A stretch of 64,000 nt of DNA from Marinobacter profundi (GTDB lineage: Bacteria > Pseudomonadota > Gammaproteobacteria > Pseudomonadales > Oleiphilaceae). Both the position numbers and the translations under genes were made by a program. Shown here one piece after another: positions 8,951-17,975 of the stretch. The number at the start of each line of letters is the position of its first letter. Within the stretch, counting starts at the first letter, position 1. The notes beneath the pieces are model-generated. The model had not been told where the DNA came from, did no database searches, and was given only the letters and a program-made list of their open reading frames with translations. The stretch is from positions 124,001 through 188,000 of the forward strand of contig NZ_KZ319369.1 of the NCBI RefSeq assembly GCF_002744715.1. The letters are read 5' to 3'.

Positions 8951-9091
8951 ATGTCGAAAGACTCGGCGCTGCTTGGAATGTTCGATCAGTATGTGTCCCA
9001 ATCCACGCTAGCACAGCGATGCCGATTGATAGCGCACTTTGGCTACGAGTCGGAAGTGGTTGCGCTTGATATTGCCTTGACGAATGCTTGA
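8951..9091 (+). CDS. Possible 46-residue small protein
   Basis: An open frame, ATG 8951 to TGA 9089-9091, encodes 46 residues (MSKDSALLGMFDQYVSQSTL, then AQRCRLIAHFGYESEVVALD and a short tail). It lies 18 bases after the preceding small gene with no strong ribosome binding site. Its stop codon overlaps the -35 box (9088-9093) of the first twin RNA. No family is recognised and it may not be translated. Confidence 0.35.
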   Translation: MSKDSALLGMFDQYVSQSTLAQRCRLIAHFGYESEVVALDIALTNA

Positions 9092-9116
9092 TTATTTTAT
9101 GCGCGGTTCATATCCT
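9088..9116 (+). promoter_or_regulatory. Sigma70 promoter of first twin RNA
   Basis: TTGATT (9088-9093), 17-base spacer, TATCCT (9111-9116). The first base of the -10 box is 13 bases before AACACG at 9124, the predicted RNA 5' end. The spacing is identical to that of the second unit. Confidence 0.6.
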
Positions 9117-9123
9117 TTCACCT

Positions 9124-9174
9124 AACACGACCCCTGCCTCTTGGCTCCGACAGGAGCTTACGCGGGGGTTTTTT
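9124..9174 (+). ncRNA. Candidate small RNA, copy 1, beside the Abi_2 gene
   Basis: A ~51-nt unit beginning AACACGACCCC and ending GCGGGGGTTTTTT. ACCCCTGC (9130-9137) can pair with GCGGGGGT (9162-9169, one G-U), enclosing a second hairpin, GCTCC (9144-9148), loop GACA, GGAGC (9153-9157). The outer stem plus six T forms an intrinsic terminator, so the whole unit is promoter, short RNA and terminator. It is the first of two similar units 108 bases apart on the + strand, convergent with the Abi_2 gene. Structured RNAs next to Abi_2 genes are known (the abiF RNA motif); whether this is one needs a covariance search. Confidence 0.6.
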
Positions 9175-9195
9175 GTAATTAGTGGTAAGCCACAC

Positions 9196-9224
9196 TTGAG
9201 TAATGCACCACTCGTGTCTATTAT
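9196..9224 (+). promoter_or_regulatory. Sigma70 promoter of second twin RNA
   Basis: TTGAGT (9196-9201), 17-base spacer, TATTAT (9219-9224), close to consensus. The predicted start is at 9231-9232, exactly at AACACG. Confidence 0.65.
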
Positions 9225-9231
9225 TTGTCGC

Positions 9232-9286
9232 AACACGGCCCCAATCGGTGGATCCGCTTTGCGGTGAAGCTGCTGCGGGGTTTTTT
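9232..9286 (+). ncRNA. Candidate small RNA, copy 2, beside the Abi_2 gene
   Basis: A ~55-nt unit beginning AACACGGCCCC and ending GCGGGGTTTTTT, the same 5' and 3' blocks as copy 1 with an almost unrelated middle. CCCC (9239-9242) pairs with GGGG (9277-9280) as the terminator base; an inner stem, CCGC (9254-9257), TTT, GCGG (9261-9264), is possible. Its T run (9281-9286) overlaps the stop codon of the Abi_2 gene on the other strand (9285-9287). Conserved ends with a divergent middle suggest a structural RNA family rather than a recent simple duplication. Confidence 0.6.
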
Positions 9287-10301
9287 ATTGCCTGCTTTTC
9301 GGGAAACACTCCCAACCTCTCCATTCATCCGAAACGCCAAAGGCGCCCCAGCCAACCCCAAGCGATTCGTTTTCTGGAAATTCTGTCAGTAATTCCGAGA
9401 GCCGTTGCCACCAGCTGGAACTTGGGTTGATGGAGCTCAACAGCGTCCGGCAGATACACAGCAACAGAAAAGGTCGGGCAAGGATATGTTCGTTGCCGCG
9501 CGCCCAGGCATTGTCAAAGTCCGGCACAACGCCCTTGGGAGGTTTTTGTGGCTGGTCTACAACGTTACGGTTCCATAAGCGGCTGTGATGGGCGCATACG
9601 TTGCGCAAATAGTTCAGACTTCGTAGCCAGGAGGCTAGAGTCCTGCCATCCTGAATCCCATATTTGTCCGCGATGGTGTCCTGGTCTTCCGGGCGCATGC
9701 CATCATAGAGCTCTGACAATGTGTTGAAATCCCATACCTCGCAGGCAATCCAGATAGGCAGAGGGTGGCCATACTTGGTTTTATTGTGCTTGATGAAGTC
9801 TTCCTTGGAGCGGGCGATTTGCGTGGCCTGCTTCTTCATCCAATCCACGTGTCTGGGTAACCCTGTTTTAGCGTCTGCCTCCTTGGCGAACCCCTCGAAC
9901 AGAATGTCCGGATTCAGGTAGGCGAATGGGTCATGCTTTCCCAGGGTGTGGGATATATCGACCCGCAATGCCACTTTGATACGCTCGAGCGCATCCAGGG
10001 CAAGAAGGCGAAGCTTTTTGTCGAATACGTAGAGGCGCACGGCCGCCTCGAAAGACGCGCTCGGCTTGAAGCTGTCCAGAACGGTGCTGGTTTCCTTTGT
10101 TTTCTTCCCTCCGGGGATGCCCTTACCGATGGGGCAAAACAACCCTGAGCGTTCACGAAACGGATGCCAGTACCCACTCAATCGGTAGTAGCCAATACGC
10201 TCCAGGTATTCCAGAGCCTTCGGCTCATCGGTAACCGCAAGTCCCCGGTTCTTTAGTTTCTCAAGCTGCTCGCGGTACCTAAGCCACGGTTTTTCGTACA
10301 C
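9285..10301 (-). CDS. Abi_2 (AbiD/AbiF-type) abortive infection protein with HEPN motif
   Basis: A 338-residue Abi_2-family protein. The typical N terminus 'PWLRYREQLEKLKNRGL' and 'YLERIGYYRLSGYW' (about 31-46) are present. The HEPN ribonuclease motif R-x4-H occurs as RNVCAH at 233-238, followed by HSRLWNR. Family members are anti-phage abortive-infection proteins, thought to be toxic RNases. The start is GTG 10301, with AAGGATGA about 9 bases upstream. It lies 21 bases downstream of the HsdS remnant on the same strand, so it may be transcribed from the restriction-modification side. Two small RNA units converge on its 3' end, a plausible RNA antitoxin or regulator. The RNase role is family inference. 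Confidence 0.85.
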   Translation of the reverse strand: MYEKPWLRYREQLEKLKNRGLAVTDEPKALEYLERIGYYRLSGYWHPFRERSGLFCPIGKGIPGGKKTKETSTVLDSFKPSASFEAAVRLYVFDKKLRLLALDALERIKVALRVDISHTLGKHDPFAYLNPDILFEGFAKEADAKTGLPRHVDWMKKQATQIARSKEDFIKHNKTKYGHPLPIWIACEVWDFNTLSELYDGMRPEDQDTIADKYGIQDGRTLASWLRSLNYLRNVCAHHSRLWNRNVVDQPQKPPKGVVPDFDNAWARGNEHILARPFLLLCICRTLLSSINPSSSWWQRLSELLTEFPENESLGVGWGAFGVSDEWRGWECFPKSRQ

Positions 10302-10322: not shown

Positions 10323-10559
10323 TTAGTTCAGGGCGTTTTCAACCACGGCGTCGGCCAACTGGCAGCGGGTTTCGCTGGCCCGGTTGACGCGTTCCTTGAG
10401 TTGGTCGCAGAGGGCCATGAGTTCATCGACTTTTTGGACGATACGGTATTGTTCTTGTTCAGGTGGCAGCCCCATCACAGTTGAGATGATTTTATCGCGC
10501 GAAATATTCGGCTGTGCTCCGCCTGCACCCATGGCGATAAATCGTGACCGGTATCCTTC
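10323..10559 (-). pseudogene. C-terminal remnant of a type I specificity subunit (hsdS)
   Basis: About 78 codons read as the end of an HsdS target-recognition domain and conserved helix: 'GAGGAQPNISRDKI', 'LPPEQEQYRIVQKVDELMAL', 'CDQLKERVNRASETRCQLAD'. The tail closely resembles the end of the intact hsdS upstream (VDELMALCDQVKERLNQASE). There is no N-terminal part; upstream the frame breaks into a fragment of another gene. The nearest in-frame ATG is 10532, without obvious ribosome binding site. It is probably the scar of a deleted second specificity gene. Confidence 0.7.
10403..10447 (-). repeat. Imperfect direct repeat shared by hsdS and its remnant
   Basis: The ~39 bases starting GGTCGCAGAGGGCCATGAGT at 10403 recur at 12956-12995 (central helix of hsdS, matching through GACTTTTTGGACGAT). 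The first 29 bases also recur at 12161-12189 (end of hsdS). All encode the conserved VDELMALCD helix of the specificity subunit. Such shared blocks can recombine to swap recognition domains. Confidence 0.7.
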
Positions 10560-10657
10560 ATTACTTGGTCTTCCAGTAGCGACTCGTCAGCGAGGGCCGC
10601 AGACTTGAGTTTTTGTGGTTGGTCTCCGATTCGCCAAATACCTTGTTCGATTGCCAT
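10547..10657 (-). pseudogene. N-terminal fragment of a DUF91/NucS-like nuclease gene
   Basis: ATG 10657 begins a frame reading MAIEQGIWRIGDQPQKL then 'ADESLLEDQVMKD', which resembles the first ~35 residues of DUF91/NucS-type endonuclease-domain proteins (typical start ...IWxxGxxPxKL...LExEKxLEDxI). After about residue 35 the match stops, and the frame continues as out-of-frame HsdS sequence to a stop at 10475. The nuclease core is missing, so this is a remnant joined to the HsdS remnant by a deletion near 10550. The family recognition is tentative. Confidence 0.5.
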
Positions 10658-10738
10658 AACGCTGCCTGTGGACAGTTAGACGTAGTTTAGAGTAACTCAA
10701 GCAAACAAGCCTTGGTGATGGCCATATCAACTGCAATC

Positions 10739-12019
10739 CTACAAACCTGAATCACTGTCCGTTTGCAGGGCAATGCCAATCGTATTGTGGTATCCATGAC
10801 TGGCTATTACGTCGAGCAGTCCGTCGTTGTTCAGGTCGGCTGCGCCGACCTGCATTGCATCAGGGGCGCCCGTATCAACTTGAGCTGCGTGCTCGAATGT
10901 TCCGTCACCCTTTCCTGTGTAAATGGTTACAGATGTCTCCTGGTTGGCCTCAGCCAATATCAGGTCATAAACTCCGTCCGAGTTAATGTCTGCTACTTCA
11001 TAATCACTCCAGACAGGGGATGAAGAAATTGCTTTGAGAGGCTCTGAAAACGTTCCATCGCCGTTGCCCAAAAAGCTGAAGATGTTGCAGCTATCCGCTG
11101 CAACAGCATCGATATTTTCGTCCCCGTTTACATCTCGCAAAACTACCAAGCCCCCATGGGAGGTAAAGCAACCGTTGTCTGGCGCCAAGTAGAGGTTTGC
11201 AGTCTCAAAAGACCCATCTCCGATACCCATAAAGACGGCGAGCGTTCTATCTCCATCGAAAGTGACCGCATCACCTGCACCATCTTTGTCTAAGTCAGAA
11301 ATAGCCAGTGCAGCTCCACTCGTTAGCCCGATGAGATCATGTGATGTGGTGAACTCACCGTCGTTGGAGGCAATATTGATATGGCCAGCGTTGGAGATGG
11401 AATCGATGACCTGGTCGTTGTTGAGGTCCTTTCCAAGAACATACCTGTTGCCACATGAGATGCTCGGCACACTTGCGAAACCGTCGAAACCGTCGGTTTC
11501 ATTCGATTGATAGTAAGCAATAGAGCAGTCTGCTCCTGTTGGAATGAAAAAGCCGATGGAGTTCTTGTTGGGAACTTCAAAAAGCGAAATCCAGCTTGCA
11601 CCGTATTCCAGGTCGGCAATAGTTGCTCGGTTGAACCCGTGGCCATCTAAATTTGAAAAGGCAGTGACGGAGTAGGTATATCCAGTCCACTGGTCGCCCT
11701 CCATCGTGGGAGCGATGATATCGCTCGCGCCATCAGTATCGATGTCGAAGATGGAAAACCAATAGGCATTATTCGCGGAGAGGAGGCTTGGGGCTGAGAA
11801 GGAGACGACTGGCTCACTCGGCTTCGGTGGTGCAGTCGGTTCACTAGGTTCCGGCGTTTCTTCGGACGCCGTTGAATCCGCTTCCTCTTGAGTTGAATCA
11901 GAGCTACTGTCGTTAGTTTCGGAAGGTTGGGGGGGCTCCGCGTCACTCCCAGAGCTGCCTCCGCAGGCGCTCAGTACGAGGGAGATCAGAATTGGTAGCA
12001 ACACATTTGCGGGTTTCAT
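10739..12019 (-). CDS. FG-GAP/VCBS-repeat lipoprotein embedded in the restriction operon
   Basis: A 426-residue lipoprotein. The signal peptide ends in the lipobox LSAC (Cys about residue 19), followed by a GGSSGSD linker and a Pro/Glu/Ser/Thr-rich spacer to about residue 70. After that come repeated calcium-binding-like FG-GAP/VCBS units: 'DIDTDGASDII', 'DLNNDQVIDSI', 'DLDKDGAGDAV', 'DVNGDENIDAV', 'DINSDGVYDLI', 'DLNNDGLLDVI', each preceding a 'GDGTF' turn. This is an integrin-alpha-like propeller on the outside of a lipid anchor. It lies between hsdS (61 bases upstream) and the HsdS remnant, an unexpected place for a surface protein. No partner is apparent; function unknown. Confidence 0.8.
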   Translation of the reverse strand: MKPANVLLPILISLVLSACGGSSGSDAEPPQPSETNDSSSDSTQEEADSTASEETPEPSEPTAPPKPSEPVVSFSAPSLLSANNAYWFSIFDIDTDGASDIIAPTMEGDQWTGYTYSVTAFSNLDGHGFNRATIADLEYGASWISLFEVPNKNSIGFFIPTGADCSIAYYQSNETDGFDGFASVPSISCGNRYVLGKDLNNDQVIDSISNAGHINIASNDGEFTTSHDLIGLTSGAALAISDLDKDGAGDAVTFDGDRTLAVFMGIGDGSFETANLYLAPDNGCFTSHGGLVVLRDVNGDENIDAVAADSCNIFSFLGNGDGTFSEPLKAISSSPVWSDYEVADINSDGVYDLILAEANQETSVTIYTGKGDGTFEHAAQVDTGAPDAMQVGAADLNNDGLLDVIASHGYHNTIGIALQTDSDSGL

Positions 12020-12080
12020 GCTTTTCCTTCCTTGTTTAGTGGTGAAAGTCGCCGTACGAGGTTGAATTTTCGAGATAGCA

Positions 12081-13754
12081 TCAACTCACTGCCTTTTGGA
12101 CAATGGCTTCGGCCAGCTGGCAGCGGGTCTCGCTGGCCTGGTTCAGGCGTTCCTTGACTTGGTCGCAGAGGGCCATGAGTTCATCGACTCTACTTAGAAT
12201 CCTCTCCTGCTCCCTGATAGGGGGCAAATCGATAGGCAGCGCCCAGAGTTTCTCTGATTTTAGCTTACAGGTGCCATGGCTAGAGCGGTCCACCAGGTCG
12301 GTCACAGTTGCTTTTCGAGCTTTAAGAAACAAAAGCAAGTACTGGGAGATGTCACTTGGCGGGACTAGCGCTTTCATGTCTTGATTGATGGTGACGGGGG
12401 CAGTTGTTATTGCGACAGGGAAGGAGTGCGCGAGTATCATCCCTCTGACAACCATAAGTAAGCTTTGTGGTGGGATTCTGCGCAGCGGGCTATTTGTAAT
12501 CGCTTCTTTAGAGACGTGGTCTTGACTGTCTGATATTTGATCAGTCTTCATGTCTTTGGGTGAAACCCACGGAATCTCTCCCTGCCAAAATTCGGGATTT
12601 TTCTTGCTCGGCGTAGCTCCGCCAATGATTTCGCCCAAATCTCCCAAGCGCACTTGAGCCCATCCAGACTGTTCGTGGTTGGTGGCATTAATATTGTGTG
12701 AGTTAAGGTAATCAATGATGGGCTCATCCTCCGCATCCTGCTCCACCAACCGCCCCATCACGGCCAGTTGCAGGATGGTCTGCTTGAGCTTGTCGATGCT
12801 CTGTTCGGTGGTGAAAAGGGTGTCGAAGTGGGCGGCGAGGCGGGCCCAATTGTCGGCCAGTTCGGTGGCGTTTTGAGATTGGGTGAGGGTGCCGAACAGG
12901 GTGTCCACGAGGGTTTCGTGGGCTTCGAGCTGGTCGCTGGTTTGCTTTTCCAGCCGGTCGCAGAGGGCCATGAGTTCATCGACTTTTTGGACGATGCGGT
13001 GTTGTTCTTCCAACGGAGGAACCGGTACTAGGCCCGAGAAAAACTGTTTGTCGTTAATCGCTGGGTAAGCAATGCCAGTTTGCGCCGATTCAACATATCT
13101 CACGAAGGCTGGGCTTCGTAGGTAGTGAAGGAAAAAGCGAGCAGGCATTCCAGCGAGTGGGTGAAGGACAGCGAATGCTGTACTGGCGATTGGCTCTGGC
13201 TCGATTTCGCTTTCGACTACAGCGATATTCTGGAGGTAGGGACGGATGGTTGAGTATATCAGCGTCCCTTCACGCACGATTTTTCTTGCTCGCGATGGTG
13301 CTTCGTCAGCTGAGAGAATACTGGGCTGGGTGGTTGCACCTCGCAGGTTATCGACAGAAGCGACATCAATATAGCTAAATTCGTTGCTTGGTGCTTTCTG
13401 ACCCCAATCTCGGCCCACATCCTCTAGCTGACCCCATTCCCAGCTTGAAGGTAAGTGAAAAGGTATGGTCATTTCCGAAAGTTCAGGGAGCTTCCTCCGT
13501 TTCTTAATCTCGCCCTGTTTCACCAAGTGAAGTTTTTCAGCTCTGACGCGCTCAAGGAGCTTGCTGGCGGGCTCGTCTGCTGGATTCTGCTCAACTAGCC
13601 TGCCCCGTACGGCCAACTCCAGAATCAACTCCCGAAGCTTCTTAATGCCAGTCAACTCAACCTTGCCATTACTCCCCCGGCCACTGCTGGACTTCTTCGT
13701 GACTGCCCCGGTCCACAAATCCAGATGCTCGGTAATCAGCTCCCGCGCACTCAC
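12081..13754 (-). CDS. hsdS: Type I restriction-modification specificity subunit
   Basis: A 557-residue DNA-recognition subunit with two target recognition domains. TRD1 occupies about 90-260 ('LPSSWEWGQLEDVG' to 'VPVPPLEEQHRIVQKVDELM') and TRD2 about 350-530 ('GWAQVRLGDLGEIIGGATP' to 'LPPIREQERILSRVDELM'). Each is followed by the conserved spacer helix. The N terminus carries 'LRELILELAVRGRLVEQ', repeated centrally as 'LKQTILQLAVMGRLVEQ', the usual internal repeat. It starts at GTG 13754, overlapping the hsdM stop by 4 bases. With two HsdM it forms the methyltransferase and with HsdR the nuclease. The target site is not predictable by eye. Confidence 0.92.
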   Translation of the reverse strand: MSARELITEHLDLWTGAVTKKSSSGRGSNGKVELTGIKKLRELILELAVRGRLVEQNPADEPASKLLERVRAEKLHLVKQGEIKKRRKLPELSEMTIPFHLPSSWEWGQLEDVGRDWGQKAPSNEFSYIDVASVDNLRGATTQPSILSADEAPSRARKIVREGTLIYSTIRPYLQNIAVVESEIEPEPIASTAFAVLHPLAGMPARFFLHYLRSPAFVRYVESAQTGIAYPAINDKQFFSGLVPVPPLEEQHRIVQKVDELMALCDRLEKQTSDQLEAHETLVDTLFGTLTQSQNATELADNWARLAAHFDTLFTTEQSIDKLKQTILQLAVMGRLVEQDAEDEPIIDYLNSHNINATNHEQSGWAQVRLGDLGEIIGGATPSKKNPEFWQGEIPWVSPKDMKTDQISDSQDHVSKEAITNSPLRRIPPQSLLMVVRGMILAHSFPVAITTAPVTINQDMKALVPPSDISQYLLLFLKARKATVTDLVDRSSHGTCKLKSEKLWALPIDLPPIREQERILSRVDELMALCDQVKERLNQASETRCQLAEAIVQKAVS

Positions 13755-15247
13755 GCCGCACCTCCGTCGGTATTCTCATCGCTGTTGTGAGAAAGCGCAT
13801 CGGCTAGGATGTCCCGCAGTTGGTTGCGGATTTCCTGGATTTCGGCCTGTTGCTGTTCGTACTTGGCCAGCAGTTCGTCCGGGTCATGGTTGACCTCTTC
13901 GCCCTGCCAGGGGTTCTTGATGTCCAGGTTGTAGTTGCGGGCCTTGATGTCGTCGATTGACACCTTCCAGGCCTGCTCGGTTTCCTCGCGGCTGGCGAAG
14001 CTGTCGGCCTCGGTGCCCCACCAGTCGATTTCGGTCTGGAACTCGGAGAACTTCATGGGCTTGGTTTTGCTATAGCTCTTGTAGCCTTCCGGGTAGGGGT
14101 GTTCGTAGTACCACACGGTTTCCGTGGGTTTGCCCTTTGTAAAGAACAGCAGGTTGGTTTTGATGCCGGTGTAGGGGTTAAACACGCCGTTGGGCAGGCG
14201 CACGATGGTGTGCAGGTTGCACTCTTCCAGCAGCTTTTCCTTGAGGCGGGTTTTCATGCCTTCGCCGAACAGGAAGCCGTCTGGTAGCACCACGGCGGCG
14301 CGGCCACCGTCCCGCAGCAGGTGGATGAACAGGGTCATGAACAGGTCGGCGGTTTCCCGGGTGCGGAAGGCGCTGGGGAAGTTGGTTTCAATGCCGTCTT
14401 CTTCCATGCCACCGAAGGGCGGGTTGGCCACGATAACGTCTACCCGCTCTTTCGGGCCCCAGCTGATGAGCGGGCGGGCCAGGGTGTTGTCGTGCTTGAT
14501 CTGGTCCGGCACTTCGACGCCGTGCAGAATCATGTTGGTGGTGGCCAGCAGGTGGGGCAGGGGCTTTTTCTCAACACCGTGGATGCTCTTCTGCAGGGTT
14601 TGTTCGTCCTGCGGGGTGCTGACGTAGTGTTTGCGCTTGTGCTCGATGGTGCAGGTAAGGAAGCCGCCGGTGCCGCAGGCCGGGTCCATCACTTTTTCGT
14701 CCAGCTTCGGGTCTATCCGGTTGACCATGAACTCGGTCACCGCCCGTGGGGTGTAGAACTCACCGGCGTTACCGGCGCTTTGCAGGTCTTTGAGGATTTG
14801 CTCGTACATATCGCCCAGCTCATGGCGCTCGGCGGATTTGTTGAAGTTGATGCCGTCTTGCAGCTTGTTGATGACCTGGCGCATAAGCTGGCCGGACTTC
14901 ATGTAGTTGTAGGCATCCTCGAACACGTTGCGGATAACCACGCCCCTGTAGTCGTCACCGGCCGGCTCCAGGTTCTGCAGGCCGGGGAACAGGGTGTTGT
15001 CGATGAAGTCTTTGAGCTCGTCGCCGGTCATGCCCTCCGGGTCGGCGGCCCAGTTGCGCCAGCGCAAGTGTTCCGGAATCGGGGATTTGTAATCGTCGTG
15101 AGTAATTGCCCACTCATCTTCCCGGTCGTCGAAAATTTTCAGGAACAACATCCATACCAGCTGGCCAATGCGCTGGGCATCGCCGTCTACGCCAACGTCT
15201 TTGCGCATGATGTCCTGGATGGATTTGATGGTGGTGCTGATAGACAT
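13751..15247 (-). CDS. hsdM: Type I restriction-modification N6-adenine methyltransferase subunit
   Basis: A 498-residue adenine methyltransferase. The N-terminal helical domain ('IMRKDVGVDGDAQRIGQLVW') is followed by 'ELGDMYEQILKDL' and 'GEFYTPRAV', then motif I DPACGTGGF (188-196) for S-adenosylmethionine and the catalytic motif IV NPPFGG (275-280). It methylates adenine in the site chosen by HsdS and protects host DNA. Length and motifs are normal, so it should be active. It lies 50 bases after hsdR and overlaps hsdS (GTGA). Confidence 0.95.
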   Translation of the reverse strand: MSISTTIKSIQDIMRKDVGVDGDAQRIGQLVWMLFLKIFDDREDEWAITHDDYKSPIPEHLRWRNWAADPEGMTGDELKDFIDNTLFPGLQNLEPAGDDYRGVVIRNVFEDAYNYMKSGQLMRQVINKLQDGINFNKSAERHELGDMYEQILKDLQSAGNAGEFYTPRAVTEFMVNRIDPKLDEKVMDPACGTGGFLTCTIEHKRKHYVSTPQDEQTLQKSIHGVEKKPLPHLLATTNMILHGVEVPDQIKHDNTLARPLISWGPKERVDVIVANPPFGGMEEDGIETNFPSAFRTRETADLFMTLFIHLLRDGGRAAVVLPDGFLFGEGMKTRLKEKLLEECNLHTIVRLPNGVFNPYTGIKTNLLFFTKGKPTETVWYYEHPYPEGYKSYSKTKPMKFSEFQTEIDWWGTEADSFASREETEQAWKVSIDDIKARNYNLDIKNPWQGEEVNHDPDELLAKYEQQQAEIQEIRNQLRDILADALSHNSDENTDGGAA

Positions 15248-15297: not shown

Positions 15298-17730
15298 TTA
15301 GGACGTTTGCCGGTAAAGCTCGTCTTCCAGGTCTTTCACGGCCTCGGTGTAGCCGGGCTTGCCCCCGAAGGAGTCCACCAGTTCCATGAGTGAGCCTATC
15401 TGGCTGAAGGGCGCGAGGGTGAGGATTTTAACATCTTCGATAGGCTCGATGCCGTCGTCGGTGTACTTGTCCAGCAGGGCGTCCAGAACCTCTTTGCTGG
15501 CGCCTTCGTATTTACTGAAGTAATCCTGCTTACGCACCTGCTCGGCCCGTTCCTTGCGGCTCAGAGGCGGCTGGTCGTAGACGATGTGGCAGATGACATC
15601 GAAGGGGTCGGGTTCGGCCCCCAGTTTCTTACTGACATCCTTGATGAGGTCGTCCCACATTACACCTTGCTCGGCCAGTTCTTCGATGATGGCCTGTTTG
15701 CGCTCGGCTTCGTTCCAGCCTTTGAGGAAGTCGGAGAGGGTGGCGTACTGCTCTTTCACTTGTTTGCGGGTGAAGTCTTTCAGACTTTCGGTGATGAGCT
15801 TGCCGTCCGGGCCGAGGTACTGGACGCGCTCCGCTATGACGGTGACTTCAACATTGTCTACCACGTAACGGGTTCGGCCACCGCCGGTTCCACCACCTTC
15901 GCCCGGGCCACCGGTATCTCCGCCTTGCGGGTCGTCGGTTTCCCAACCCGCTTCGGGGTCTGCTTCATAGCCCTCGGGCTCCTCGCCGCATCCATGCCCC
16001 GGCTCTGGAGTCTCCGGCGCGTCCTCGTCATCAGGATTAACGGGATCTCCGGCTCCGGGAACATAGACTTTCACAGGGTCGCCATCGAATGCTGGGTCCG
16101 CAAACAGCTCGGTGGCCTTTTTGAAGTCCAGAATGGTGAACCAGTGCTTGTTGTAGTCGTCGTTGATGCGGGTGCCACGGCCGATAATCTGCTTGAATTC
16201 GGTCATGGACTGGATGCGCTGGTCCAGCACGATGAGTTTGCAGGTTTGGGCGTCCACGCCGGTGGTCATCAGCTTGCTGGTGGTAGCAATCACCGGGTAA
16301 CGCTCTTCCGGGTTGATGAAGTTGTCCAGCTCGGCTTTGCCTTCCTGCTCATCGCCGGTGATGCGCATGACGTACTTGCGGTTCTCTTTCACTCGCTCCG
16401 GGTTCAGGTTCACGAGGGCCTGGCGCATGCGTTCGGCGTGGTCGATGTCTTCGCAGAAGACGATGGTTTTCTGGTAGGGGTCGGTTTGTTCGAGGAATTC
16501 GGTCACTTTCCTGGCGACCACTTCGGTGCGCTTCTCCAGCACGAGCTGGCGGTCGAAGTCTTTCTGGTTGTAGATGCGGTCTTCGATGAGCTCGCCGTGC
16601 TTGTCGGTCTGCCCCTTGCTGGGGCGCCAGCCCTGCAGGTCTCGATCCAGGTCGATGCGTACGACTTTGTAGGGGGCCAGAAAGCCATCTTCGATGCCCT
16701 GCTTCAGGGAGTAGGTGTAAACCGGCTCGCCGAAGTAGTCGATGTTGGAGACTTCCTTGGTTTCCTTCGGTGTGGCGGTCAGGCCGATGTGGGTGGCGGC
16801 GGAGAAGTAGTCCAGAATCTGCCGCCAGGCGGAGTCCACGGAGGCGCTGCCCCGGTGGCACTCGTCGATAACCACGAGGTCGAAGAAGTCCGGGGAGAAC
16901 TGCTTGTAAATGTTCTGCTCGTCCTCGCTGCCGGTGACGGCCTGGTACAGCGACAGGTAAATCTCGTAGGACGGGTCTACCGTTCGGTTCGTGACCTTGG
17001 TCATGGCCTGGCCGAAGGGCTTGAAGTCATTGTTCTTGGTCTGGTCTACCAGAATGTTGCGGTCGGCCAGGAACAGGATGCGTTTCTTCTGCTTGGACTT
17101 CCACAGCCGCCAGATTATCTGAAAGGCCGTGAAGGTCTTGCCGGTGCCGGTGGCCATCACCAGCAGAATGCGGTTCTGTCCGCGGGCCACGGCCTCTACA
17201 GTGCGGTTGATGGCGACTGTCTGGTAATAGCGGGGCGTTCGGCCGCTGCCGTCATCGTAGTAGGGCTGTTCGACCGTCTGCCTGGCGTTCTGGTGAATGC
17301 CTTTGTGCTGGCAGTAGAGCTCCCAGAGGGTTTCTGGGGAGGGGAATTCGCCCAGGCTTAGGGTGGTTTCGGTTTGGCCGAAGAGCCCGGTGCGGTCGTG
17401 GAACAGGAAGCCGTCGCCGTTACTGCTGAACACGAAAGGGGCGTCGAGGGCATCGCTGTAAGCCAGAGCCTGCTGCATGCCATCGCCCAGGCTGTGGTTG
17501 TTGTCCTTGGCTTCGATGATGGCAATGGGCATGTTCTTCTTGTAGCTGAGAACGTAATCCGCCCGGCGGCGCTTGCCACGGGTGTGCAGCCTGCCACGCA
17601 CGATGATGCGGCCAGCAGTGAACGAGACTTCCTCCCGCACCTGGCTGTGCATGTCCCATCCTGCTTGCTGCAGGGCAGGATTGATGTACTTGGTGCAGAT
17701 GTCCCGCTCTGTGAGCTTTTTCTTGTCCAT
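15298..17730 (-). CDS. hsdR: Type I restriction endonuclease subunit (EcoEI-like)
   Basis: An 810-residue motor-nuclease. The N-terminal nuclease motif is D58 with E73-A-K75 (IIEAK). Superfamily 2 motor motifs follow: P-loop ATGTGKT (193-199), 'ADRNILVDQ', DECH (289-292), 'GLTATP', and 'IGRGTRI' near residue 520. An acidic, Gly/Pro-rich linker (about 570-630) precedes the C-terminal HsdM-contacting part. It translocates and cuts unmethylated DNA. ATG 17730 is chosen; an upstream in-frame TTG at 17760 is less likely. First gene of the operon hsdR-hsdM-hsdS. All motifs look intact. Confidence 0.93.
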
Positions 17731-17975
17731 GCGCTCGCCGCCGTTATTTCCGGATTGCAACTATCTGACGTGAAATGATTTTGCCGCTTCAGGGTAGCCC
17801 AAATTGTCGGGTTCCAGAAGAGCTGCTTGGTTTGCTGTGTCACTAGCGCGTGGAGTGCGATGTGCGGTGTCTGACCGATATTGGGAGGTGCGCATGGTCA
17901 GTAACAGCGACATCAGAATATTTCCTGGGAAACAAGCGGTCCTATTTGCAAACCTGAAAAGAATGACAAGAGCTG

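What the first reader, a model, noticed from the sequence alone, without database searches (positions are those of the whole stretch)
9088..10301. Abi_2/HEPN gene convergent with two tandem promoter-hairpin-terminator RNA units
Seen: two + strand units 108 bases apart, each with TTGA(T/G)T-N17-TATNNT, a start 13 bases from the first -10 base at AACACG(A/G)CCCC, and an end of GCGGGG(G)TTTTTT. The ends agree and the middles differ, as in a structural RNA family. The second unit's T run overlaps the Abi_2 stop codon. Known: Abi_2 proteins are abortive-infection HEPN RNases, and structured RNAs near Abi_2/abiF genes have been reported (the abiF RNA motif). Inference: the RNAs are an antitoxin or regulator of the Abi_2 protein; two separately promoted copies would be a notable arrangement.
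Basis: partly seen in the sequence, partly recalled or inferred. Interest (0 to 1): 0.82.

Follow-up and report, generated by a model that had tools for sequence, protein, structure and literature searches.

The report
Abi_2 toxin with convergent RNA antitoxin
Next to a bacterial self-poisoning anti-virus gene lie two small structured RNAs: one is very probably the gene's own antidote, the other looks like the antidote of a related, missing toxin, and some bacterial viruses carry look-alikes of both.

Summary
In detail: two promoter-RNA-terminator units (RNAs 9124-9174 and 9232-9286, +) converge on an Abi_2/AbiF HEPN gene (9285-10301, -) in a Marinobacter type I restriction island. They are not two copies. 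Unit 2 belongs to a ~55-nt RNA family that lies convergent at the 3' end of the Abi_2 relatives of at least 52% identity that I examined. It covaries, and I read it as the cognate RNA antitoxin (type III-like), as reported for other AbiF systems. Rfam's abiF model detects neither unit, but unit 1's model finds abiF sites at other Abi_2 genes, so the RNAs look homologous to abiF RNA. Elsewhere abiF RNA lies upstream in sense; in this clade it lies downstream and convergent. Unit 1 is the RNA type of a second Abi_2 subfamily that this genome lacks; it is conserved as an orphan beside several defence cassettes. Boldest lead: 15 viral contigs carry such RNAs, 14 without Abi_2 in the record, one with both types in tandem; they may be phage antitoxin mimics. 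Nothing functional was tested, and most viral copies lack a recognisable promoter and could be terminators. New variant of a known kind.

The parts
9285..10301 (-). Abi_2 / AbiD-F HEPN ribonuclease gene, 338 aa, GTG start; RNVCAH at residues 233-238
   Evidence: PF07751 189.6 bits; PADLOC AbiD 202.3 bits; PDB 8vz6_A (Abi family protein) E 5e-31 with RNVCAH aligned to RNSCCH; motif position
9232..9286 (+). Unit 2: ~55-nt structured RNA (family fam2), probable cognate RNA antitoxin, with its own intrinsic terminator
   Evidence: Convergent at the Abi_2 3' end in relatives; covariation; fam2 labels one tree clade
9196..9224 (+). Unit 2 promoter TTGAGT-N17-TATTAT
   Evidence: 9 of 12 matches; promoter score kept across 28 loci
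9124..9174 (+). Unit 1: ~51-nt structured RNA (family fam1), RNA type of the Abi_2-B subfamily, orphan in this genome
   Evidence: R2 79.4 bits, by construction high since it is in the model; fam1 adjoins Abi_2-B in L007, L008, L009, L103; one Abi_2 only in own genome; covariation
9088..9116 (+). Unit 1 promoter TTGATT-N17-TATCCT
   Evidence: 8 of 12 matches, p 0.056 alone; fam1 set above all 300 shuffled means
10323..10532 (-). HsdS C-terminal fragment whose stop lies 21 bases before the Abi_2 start codon (context)
   Evidence: PADLOC Specificity_I C-terminal match, 70.7 bits; ORF
12081..15247 (-). hsdS (12081-13754) and hsdM (13751-15247), type I restriction genes of the same island (context)
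   Evidence: Pfam Methylase_S, N6_Mtase, HsdM_N

Best explanation
A type III-like toxin-antitoxin module. The Abi_2 protein is a HEPN RNase, probably made from the restriction operon's transcript. Unit 2 is its RNA antitoxin, made from its own promoter on the opposite strand and ended by its own terminator at the toxin's stop codon; the ~55-nt RNA would bind the Abi_2 dimer and keep it inactive until phage infection upsets the balance. Because the RNA is not co-transcribed with the toxin, the ratio would be set by two separate promoters and not by terminator readthrough. Unit 1 is the homologous RNA of a second Abi_2 subfamily, kept here without its toxin; the likeliest use is protection against an incoming or formerly resident Abi_2-B. 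Shown by comparison: conservation, covariation, promoter positions, clade specificity, homology of the two families, and a weaker link to abiF RNA. Inferred: operon transcript, binding, neutralisation, RNase activity, induction by phage, the role of unit 1.
For: Unit 2-type RNA lies convergent at the Abi_2 3' end in 20 of 21 loci found with the window protein, all but the 36%-identical one (in L028, L037 and L038 the gene is interrupted or partial), at both class-sample hits outside the own genome (one, G309, is the same sequence as L021) and in 4 of 10 plasmid relatives fetched, the four of at least 55% identity. In a tree of 50 Abi_2 rows fam2 is one clade (100/98) and all 25 rows with a convergent 3' RNA lie in one 26-row clade (100/100). 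Covariation: fam2 5 of 13 pairs and 32 cells with both-side changes, fam1 10 of 14 pairs and 32 cells, 0 of 500 shuffles as high. The fam1 model recognises the fam2 RNA in all 23 further fam2 loci tried, at 20-26 bits. The protein matches 8vz6; [quoted passage not shown] Orphan state of unit 1: one Abi_2 in the own genome. Unit 1 is 90.3% identical over 5 tandem loci and 93.5% over 4 PDC-M04 loci, against 43.2% and 57.9% just upstream and 75.5% and 88.2% in the adjacent gene. No minus-strand promoter-like site was listed between 9122 and 11714.
Against: No expression, toxicity or binding data. Rfam's abiF model gives no hit to either unit. Unit 2's folding energy is not unusual. Unit 1's promoter is weak by consensus. 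fam1-like hits also occur away from Abi_2: L079 at the 3' end of a Vsr-like ORF, L081 near a KilA-N-like ORF (both names by eye). The only Abi_2-B relic seen near a unit 1 (L017 in G004) is not in the partner position. A second RNA-like stretch beside the PDC-M04 genes means that unit 1 could have other partners.
Confidence: 0.75

Rival explanations
1. Both RNAs serve the one Abi_2 protein as redundant or graded antitoxins, a two-gene dose-control arrangement.
For: The tandem order and 108-110-base spacing recur in 6 Marinobacter genomes; the two families are homologous (R2 scores unit 2 at 20.5 bits).
Against: fam1 stands alone beside another Abi_2 subfamily (L007, L008, L009, L103); 23 other fam2 loci have no separate fam1 unit; unit 1 is present in genomes without an Abi_2 hit.
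Confidence: 0.15
2. The units are only transcription terminators or insulators at a convergent gene pair and a defence-island edge.
For: Both end in a G+C-rich stem and a T run; most viral copies show no promoter signal; in 5 named jumbo phages the SSB-UvsX gap that holds fam2 in metagenomic contigs holds a plain hairpin.
Against: The AACACG leader, the internal-loop sequences and a second helix are conserved and covary; promoters are kept at fixed spacing in the genomes; scans of viral contigs with the motif letters permuted found 0.
Confidence: 0.07
3. Unit 1 is an anchor or boundary element through which defence cassettes are exchanged by recombination.
For: Unit 1 sits before different cassettes: fam2+Abi_2-A in 5 genomes (two of these Abi_2 genes broken), PDC-M04 in 5 plus 1 remnant, fam2 and a HipA-like gene in 1; its other neighbours differ.
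Against: Promoter elements and paired bases are kept, which a recombination anchor would not need.
Confidence: 0.1
4. The RNA is an activating or guide component of an Abi_2 ribonucleoprotein, Cas13-like, and not an inhibitor.
For: AbiF is reported as ancestral to Cas13 (PMC12737573 passages).
Against: The two characterised AbiF RNAs inhibit; the RNAs are short and mostly conserved, the variable part being a paired stem, so no guide-like stretch is evident.
Confidence: 0.08

Closest known systems
AbiF-Cd / RCd22 of Clostridioides difficile prophage phi027 (PMC12373285)
   Same: Abi_2 family toxin with a catalytic R/H pair, partnered with a structured abiF-type RNA that neutralises by direct binding.
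   Different: RCd22 lies upstream, in sense, co-transcribed, with two abiF motifs in one RNA; here the RNA is downstream, convergent, separately promoted, one motif per unit, and outside the RF03085 model.
PbAbiF / AbiFr (PDB 8VZ6; Zilberzwige-Tal et al., seen only as cited in PMC12373285 and PMC12737573)
   Same: Protein homologous over most of its length (E 5e-31) with the catalytic pair aligned.
   Different: AbiFr's sequence could not be compared; gene order of that system not seen.
abiF RNA motif, Rfam RF03085
   Same: GCCUCU directly after the first helix strand is shared with unit 1; unit 1's model recovers 4 RF03085 sites, weakly.
   Different: RF03085 finds neither unit; the 13 loci with RF03085 hits found here have it upstream in sense.
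ToxIN type III and pseudo-ToxI of phage PhiTE (described in PMC5449768, passages)
   Same: RNA antitoxin of an RNase toxin; precedent for an antitoxin-like RNA carried and expressed by a phage.
   Different: Different toxin family; ToxI comes as tandem repeats (PMC12373285); the PhiTE case is an expansion in escape mutants, here the RNA sits in 15 metagenomic viral contigs and is untested.

Membership tests
Abi_2 / AbiF (AbiD-F) HEPN toxins | Abi_2 domain over the family cut-off | tested here: met
   189.6 bits against a cut-off of 25.6
Abi_2 / AbiF (AbiD-F) HEPN toxins | HEPN RxxxxH with R and H at the catalytic positions of PbAbiF | tested here: met
   RNVCAH 233-238 aligned to RNSCCH of 8vz6; that these are R210/H215 I worked out by counting along the printed alignment
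Abi_2 / AbiF (AbiD-F) HEPN toxins | Toxic RNase activity | not testable with these tools
   no experiment
abiF RNA (RF03085) | Match to the Rfam model at its gathering score | tested here: not met
   no hit in the window or the own genome at E up to 10
abiF RNA (RF03085) | Homology to abiF RNA | tested here: met
   the unit 1 model, built without RF03085 hits, gave 7 hits at E up to 10 in 20 other Abi_2 loci; 6 lie upstream in sense (L095 E 1.3e-5, L102 E 0.004), 4 of them on RF03085 hits, 1 lies elsewhere; the four overlapping hits are individually weak (E 0.026-0.39), the support is their place. RF03085 in turn does not find L134, L136, L137 or L140
abiF RNA (RF03085) | Upstream, sense position beside Abi_2 | tested here: not met
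   convergent at the 3' end; 13 of 20 other Abi_2 loci have RF03085 hits upstream in sense at E up to 1, 5 of them over the gathering score
Type III toxin-antitoxin system | RNA antitoxin binds and neutralises the protein toxin | not testable with these tools
   inferred from homology
Type III toxin-antitoxin system | Antitoxin repeats upstream of the toxin, co-transcribed, terminator between | tested here: not met
   promoter-like sites of its own, opposite strand, RNA downstream

The most novel reading that the evidence does not exclude
These RNAs are the currency of an antitoxin arms race: one Abi_2 clade moved its antitoxin RNA to a separate convergent gene, which made the RNA mobile without the toxin. 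Bacteria keep orphan RNAs (unit 1) as immunity against missing Abi_2-B toxins, and phages carry one or both RNAs, in one contig as the same fam1-fam2 tandem, as ready-made inhibitors of Abi_2 defence.
Probability: 0.35. Interest if true: 0.85.

Novelty: new variant of a known kind. Interest (0 to 1): 0.62.

Why it matters
AbiF-type systems are reported as ancestors of Cas13, and how their RNAs are arranged, matched to toxins and escaped by phages is little known. Here the toxin-RNA matching can be read from the tree, the RNA has changed strand and side of the gene, and RNAs of the same families sit in viral contigs without the toxin. That makes RNA-based escape from Abi_2 defence directly testable with short RNAs.

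Tried and rejected
Rejected: that the units are RF03085 members by score; that they are two copies of one RNA; the plain-terminator reading as sole explanation. Not favoured: PDC-M04 (DUF3800) genes as direct partners of unit 1, because a further conserved promoter-RNA-like stretch lies between them; this is not excluded.

Led nowhere: Rfam scan of 16 loci, most of them unit 1 loci (no hit); BLASTN of the units and of two viral copies against named phages (none); model searches in nine named-phage loci (only short plain terminators, best 19.0 bits); search for the same chromosomal flank in 100 Marinobacter genomes to find an empty site (2 genomes besides the own one, not pursued); window protein against viral contigs (none, although L124 holds a 55% relative, so that tool's reach is limited); DUF3800 RNA-motif literature (one paper listed, not opened).

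Mended on checking: the first fam1 pair count contained five fam2 rows; I repeated it without them, and the result stands.

Rows dropped: my script settled no frame for L093 and L100; L101 and L109 were also left out of the tree as doubtful; L012, L013, L014, L017, L018, L011, L016, L037 and L038 as partial, broken or too distant; L019, L020, L022, L028 and L033 as near-copies; L124 and L131-L140 were fetched later. The tree holds 50 rows. The genus and class searches with RNA models used stricter filters that lose weak matches (stated).
Full report
Observation. The gene at 9285-10301 (-) is Abi_2 (PF07751, 189.6 bits; PADLOC AbiD). Its only match among solved structures at E up to 1 is the Abi family protein 8vz6_A (E 5e-31), and its RNVCAH (233-238) aligns with that protein's RNSCCH. 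PMC12373285 (section 13) states that PbAbiF R210A+H215A is inactive; counting along the alignment puts R233/H238 at those positions; that 8vz6 is PbAbiF is from PMC12737573 (passages). The neighbourhood is a type I restriction island: hsdM and hsdS by Pfam, an HsdS C-terminal fragment just before Abi_2, and an HsdR-like ORF at 15298-17760 named by eye. The one Abi_2 match in the own genome is this gene.

Unit 2. Of 21 loci that encode relatives of the window protein, 20 (52-95% identity) carry a unit 2-type RNA (fam2) convergent at the Abi_2 3' end; the exception is the 36%-identical Verrucomicrobia locus L039. In L028 the gene is interrupted, in L037 and L038 partial, and in L038 the RNA overlaps the end of the frame. 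The hosts include Marinobacter, Halomonas, Halospina, Marinomonas, Vibrio, Shewanella and a Rugamonas MAG. Of ten plasmid relatives that I fetched, the four with at least 55% identity (Methylomonas, Methylobacter, Rhizobium, Sinorhizobium) have it convergent at the 3' end; I fetched 10 of the 67 records, and three further listed ones at 55.6% were not looked at. In 369 genomes of the class, 37 have Abi_2 and 3, the own one included, have a fam2 hit; both others lie at an Abi_2 3' end, one being the same sequence as L021. The consensus is AACACGGCCCC-n-WTCRGT-hairpin-CTGCT-like-GGGGTTTTTT. On 40 distinct rows, viral ones included, 97.4% of cells pair, 5 of 13 pairs have changes on both sides (32 cells), and no shuffle of 500 is as high; that alignment was fitted to the model's own structure, which flatters the count.

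Unit 1. The unit 1 type (fam1) stands alone and convergent at the 3' end of a different Abi_2 subfamily (Abi_2-B) in L007, L008, L009 and L103, the first three 43-45% identical to the window's protein. A model from eight fam1 sequences (R2) hits 19 of 100 Marinobacter genomes at E up to 0.1, the own one included; 16 copies in 15 genomes score at least 44 bits. Of these 16, three adjoin Abi_2-B (G005, G063, G083), six stand 108-110 bases before a fam2 unit (G000, G004, G032, G043, G085, G062), five stand before a PDC-M04 pair (DUF3800 gene plus a ~170-aa gene; G015, G019, G067, G074, G089; family searches were run on the genes of G074 and G019, the others were matched by eye), one before what looks like a remnant of that pair (second copy in G083), and one (G096) in a context I did not resolve. 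No Abi_2 hit was found in G015, G019, G074, G089 and G096; in G085 a truncated Abi_2 is visible that the family search missed. In the PDC-M04 loci a further conserved promoter-RNA-like stretch lies between unit 1 and the genes. Unit 1 is more conserved than what surrounds it: 90.3% over five tandem loci against 43.2% upstream, 79.3% in the spacer and 75.5% in the Abi_2 3' part (unit 2: 93.5%); 93.5% over four PDC-M04 loci against 57.9%, 78.1% and 88.2%, though the stretch behind it is 95.9%. These are small samples and do not exclude recent spread. On 24 fam1 rows, 10 of 14 pairs have changes on both sides (32 cells), 0 of 500 shuffles as high, with the same caveat as above. A decayed Abi_2 piece in G004, about 2.5 kb to the left of unit 1, matches Abi_2-B best (45% over 122 residues, 89 bits, against 53 bits for Abi_2-A), but not in the partner position.

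fam2 copies also outlive their toxin: of ten fam2 copies over 60 bits in nine Marinobacter genomes, six adjoin an open Abi_2 (G000, G002, G004, G032, two in G080), one an interrupted one (G043), one a truncated one (G085), and two have no recognisable Abi_2 beside them (G052, with a few Abi_2-like end codons by eye, and G062, with a HipA-like gene below Pfam's cut-off).

The two families and abiF RNA. R2 recognises the fam2 RNA in all 23 further fam2 loci tried (20-26 bits, E 9e-5 to 0.004) and finds no separate fam1 unit there, so the families are homologous and the tandem is not general. RF03085 finds nothing in the window or genome and nothing at E up to 1 in 16 loci of this clade (L007, L008, L009; 13 loci). 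As a positive control, 13 of 20 other Abi_2 loci (20 of the 25 unlabelled tree rows were given) have RF03085 hits at E up to 1, 5 of them over the gathering score, all on the gene's strand and before a plausible start codon. R2, built without any of these, gave 7 hits in the same 20 loci; 6 lie upstream in sense (L095 at 27.3 bits, L102, and four that overlap RF03085 hits), one does not. Two plasmid relatives have fam1-like RNA upstream in sense (L134 39.9 bits, L140 25.8 bits). RF03085's consensus carries GCCUCU after the first helix strand and unit 1 carries GCCUCUU there. I conclude that both families are divergent abiF-class RNAs and that the sense-upstream position is the common one.

Tree. 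In a maximum-likelihood tree of 50 Abi_2 proteins, fam2 bearers are one clade (100/98), fam1 bearers are two lineages next to it, and L095 (upstream-sense RNA by R2) is sister to both within a 26-row clade (100/100). This fits one relocation of the RNA from the 5' sense to the 3' convergent position, with fam1 the older type. It is not proved: fam1 as one group has 5% of bootstrap trees, the fork that sets L095 apart has 91/87, and the one between the fam1 lineages 88/44.

Promoters. At the fixed position before the RNA start, fam2 loci average 9.18 of 12 consensus matches (n 28; shuffled mean 5.66, highest shuffled mean 6.61), fam1 7.2 (n 15; 5.41, 6.2), viral copies 5.73 (n 15; 5.39, 6.27, so no signal). 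Four viral sites in three contigs (both of L123, L125, L130) have TACAAT or TATAAT 12 bases before the RNA start.

Viral copies. Exact-pattern scans of IMG/VR found fam2-type RNA in 12 contigs (a second fam2 pattern found 7 of the same) and fam1-type in 2, then 3 with a second pattern: 15 records in all. Two scans with permuted motif letters found none. Bit scores are 41-72 (fam2) and 57-66 (fam1). The whole records, up to 261,806 bases, were searched for Abi_2: 1 of 15 has it, L124, beside its fam2 RNA; the records are fragments, so absence is not shown for the viruses. L123 carries fam1 then fam2, 65 bases apart start to start. Of ten flanking proteins tested, phage families were found for SSB and UvsX on either side of the RNA in L119, a helicase in L123, tail sheath and tail terminator in L125, DNA ligase in L126 and terminase in L129, and phage families of unknown function for one protein each of L120, L123 and L130. 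In L118, L121, L127 and L128 the RNA stands before the same UvsX-like start as in L119; in L122 the held piece ends behind the RNA, which differs there by a paired C-G to U-A change (neighbours by eye). Against: most of these copies have no promoter signal, five named jumbo phages have a plain hairpin in the SSB-UvsX gap, and nine named-phage loci gave no real hit. So phage antitoxin mimicry is a lead, not a result. A precedent exists in type III systems: PhiTE escape mutants expand a pseudo-ToxI (PMC5449768, passages).

Literature. Nine searches of the held library on Abi_2/AbiF with RNA or antitoxin terms, DUF3800 RNA, and phage RNA mimicry listed no paper whose title or shown abstract describes a convergent 3' RNA, heterotypic tandem RNAs, or a phage-borne abiF-type RNA without toxin. 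I read PMC12373285 in its outline, abstract, passages and sections 12 and 13, and passages only of PMC12737573, PMC12804078 and PMC5449768. The two papers likeliest to bear on this, Zilberzwige-Tal et al. 2025 and Weinberg et al. 2017, are not held under the identifiers I recalled, so their gene arrangements are unknown to me; AbiF covariance models by the former authors exist (PMC12804078) and may include these RNAs.

Verdict. Unit 2 is very probably the RNA antitoxin of this Abi_2 (about 0.85); unit 1 is probably an orphan antitoxin-type RNA of Abi_2-B (about 0.5 for that role). The system is a new variant of the known AbiF/type III-like kind, with a changed architecture and a testable lead on phage escape.

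Noticed in passing
window 10323-13754: hsdS is followed by an FG-GAP repeat gene (10739-12019) and then a second, C-terminal HsdS fragment, as if a gene was inserted after a partial duplication.
   Followed up: no
L042, L045, L047, L051 (about 55-170 bases 3' of unit 1) and L046, L049: A conserved stretch with TTGAAA-N17-TATAGT and hairpins (in L046 and L049 another, TTGCTT-N17-TAATAT in L046) lies convergent with the PDC-M04 (DUF3800) genes and in the first four is more conserved (95.9%) than the gene beside it; possibly a further RNA partner of a candidate defence system.
   Followed up: partly
L034 2144-2197, 2606-2662, 3998-4051 (-): Marinomonas rhodophyticola has three fam2 RNAs in one locus; one is convergent with a second, very divergent Abi_2 gene (216 aa, 34.5 bits).
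   Followed up: partly
G083 contig C33, 12100-15079 (L049, L008): Serial cassettes: fam1 orphan, apparent remnant of a PDC-M04 cassette, an HTH-type gene (named by eye), then fam1 with its Abi_2-B; both RNAs on one strand and the genes on the other.
   Followed up: partly
L079 214-264 (-): A fam1-like RNA (42.1 bits) overlaps the 3' end of a Vsr-like ORF (named by eye) with no clear promoter.
   Followed up: no
L053/L060 (G062) and L054/L073 (G096): fam1-like or fam2-like RNA hits, some weak, lie on both sides of a HipA-like/HIRAN gene region.
   Followed up: no
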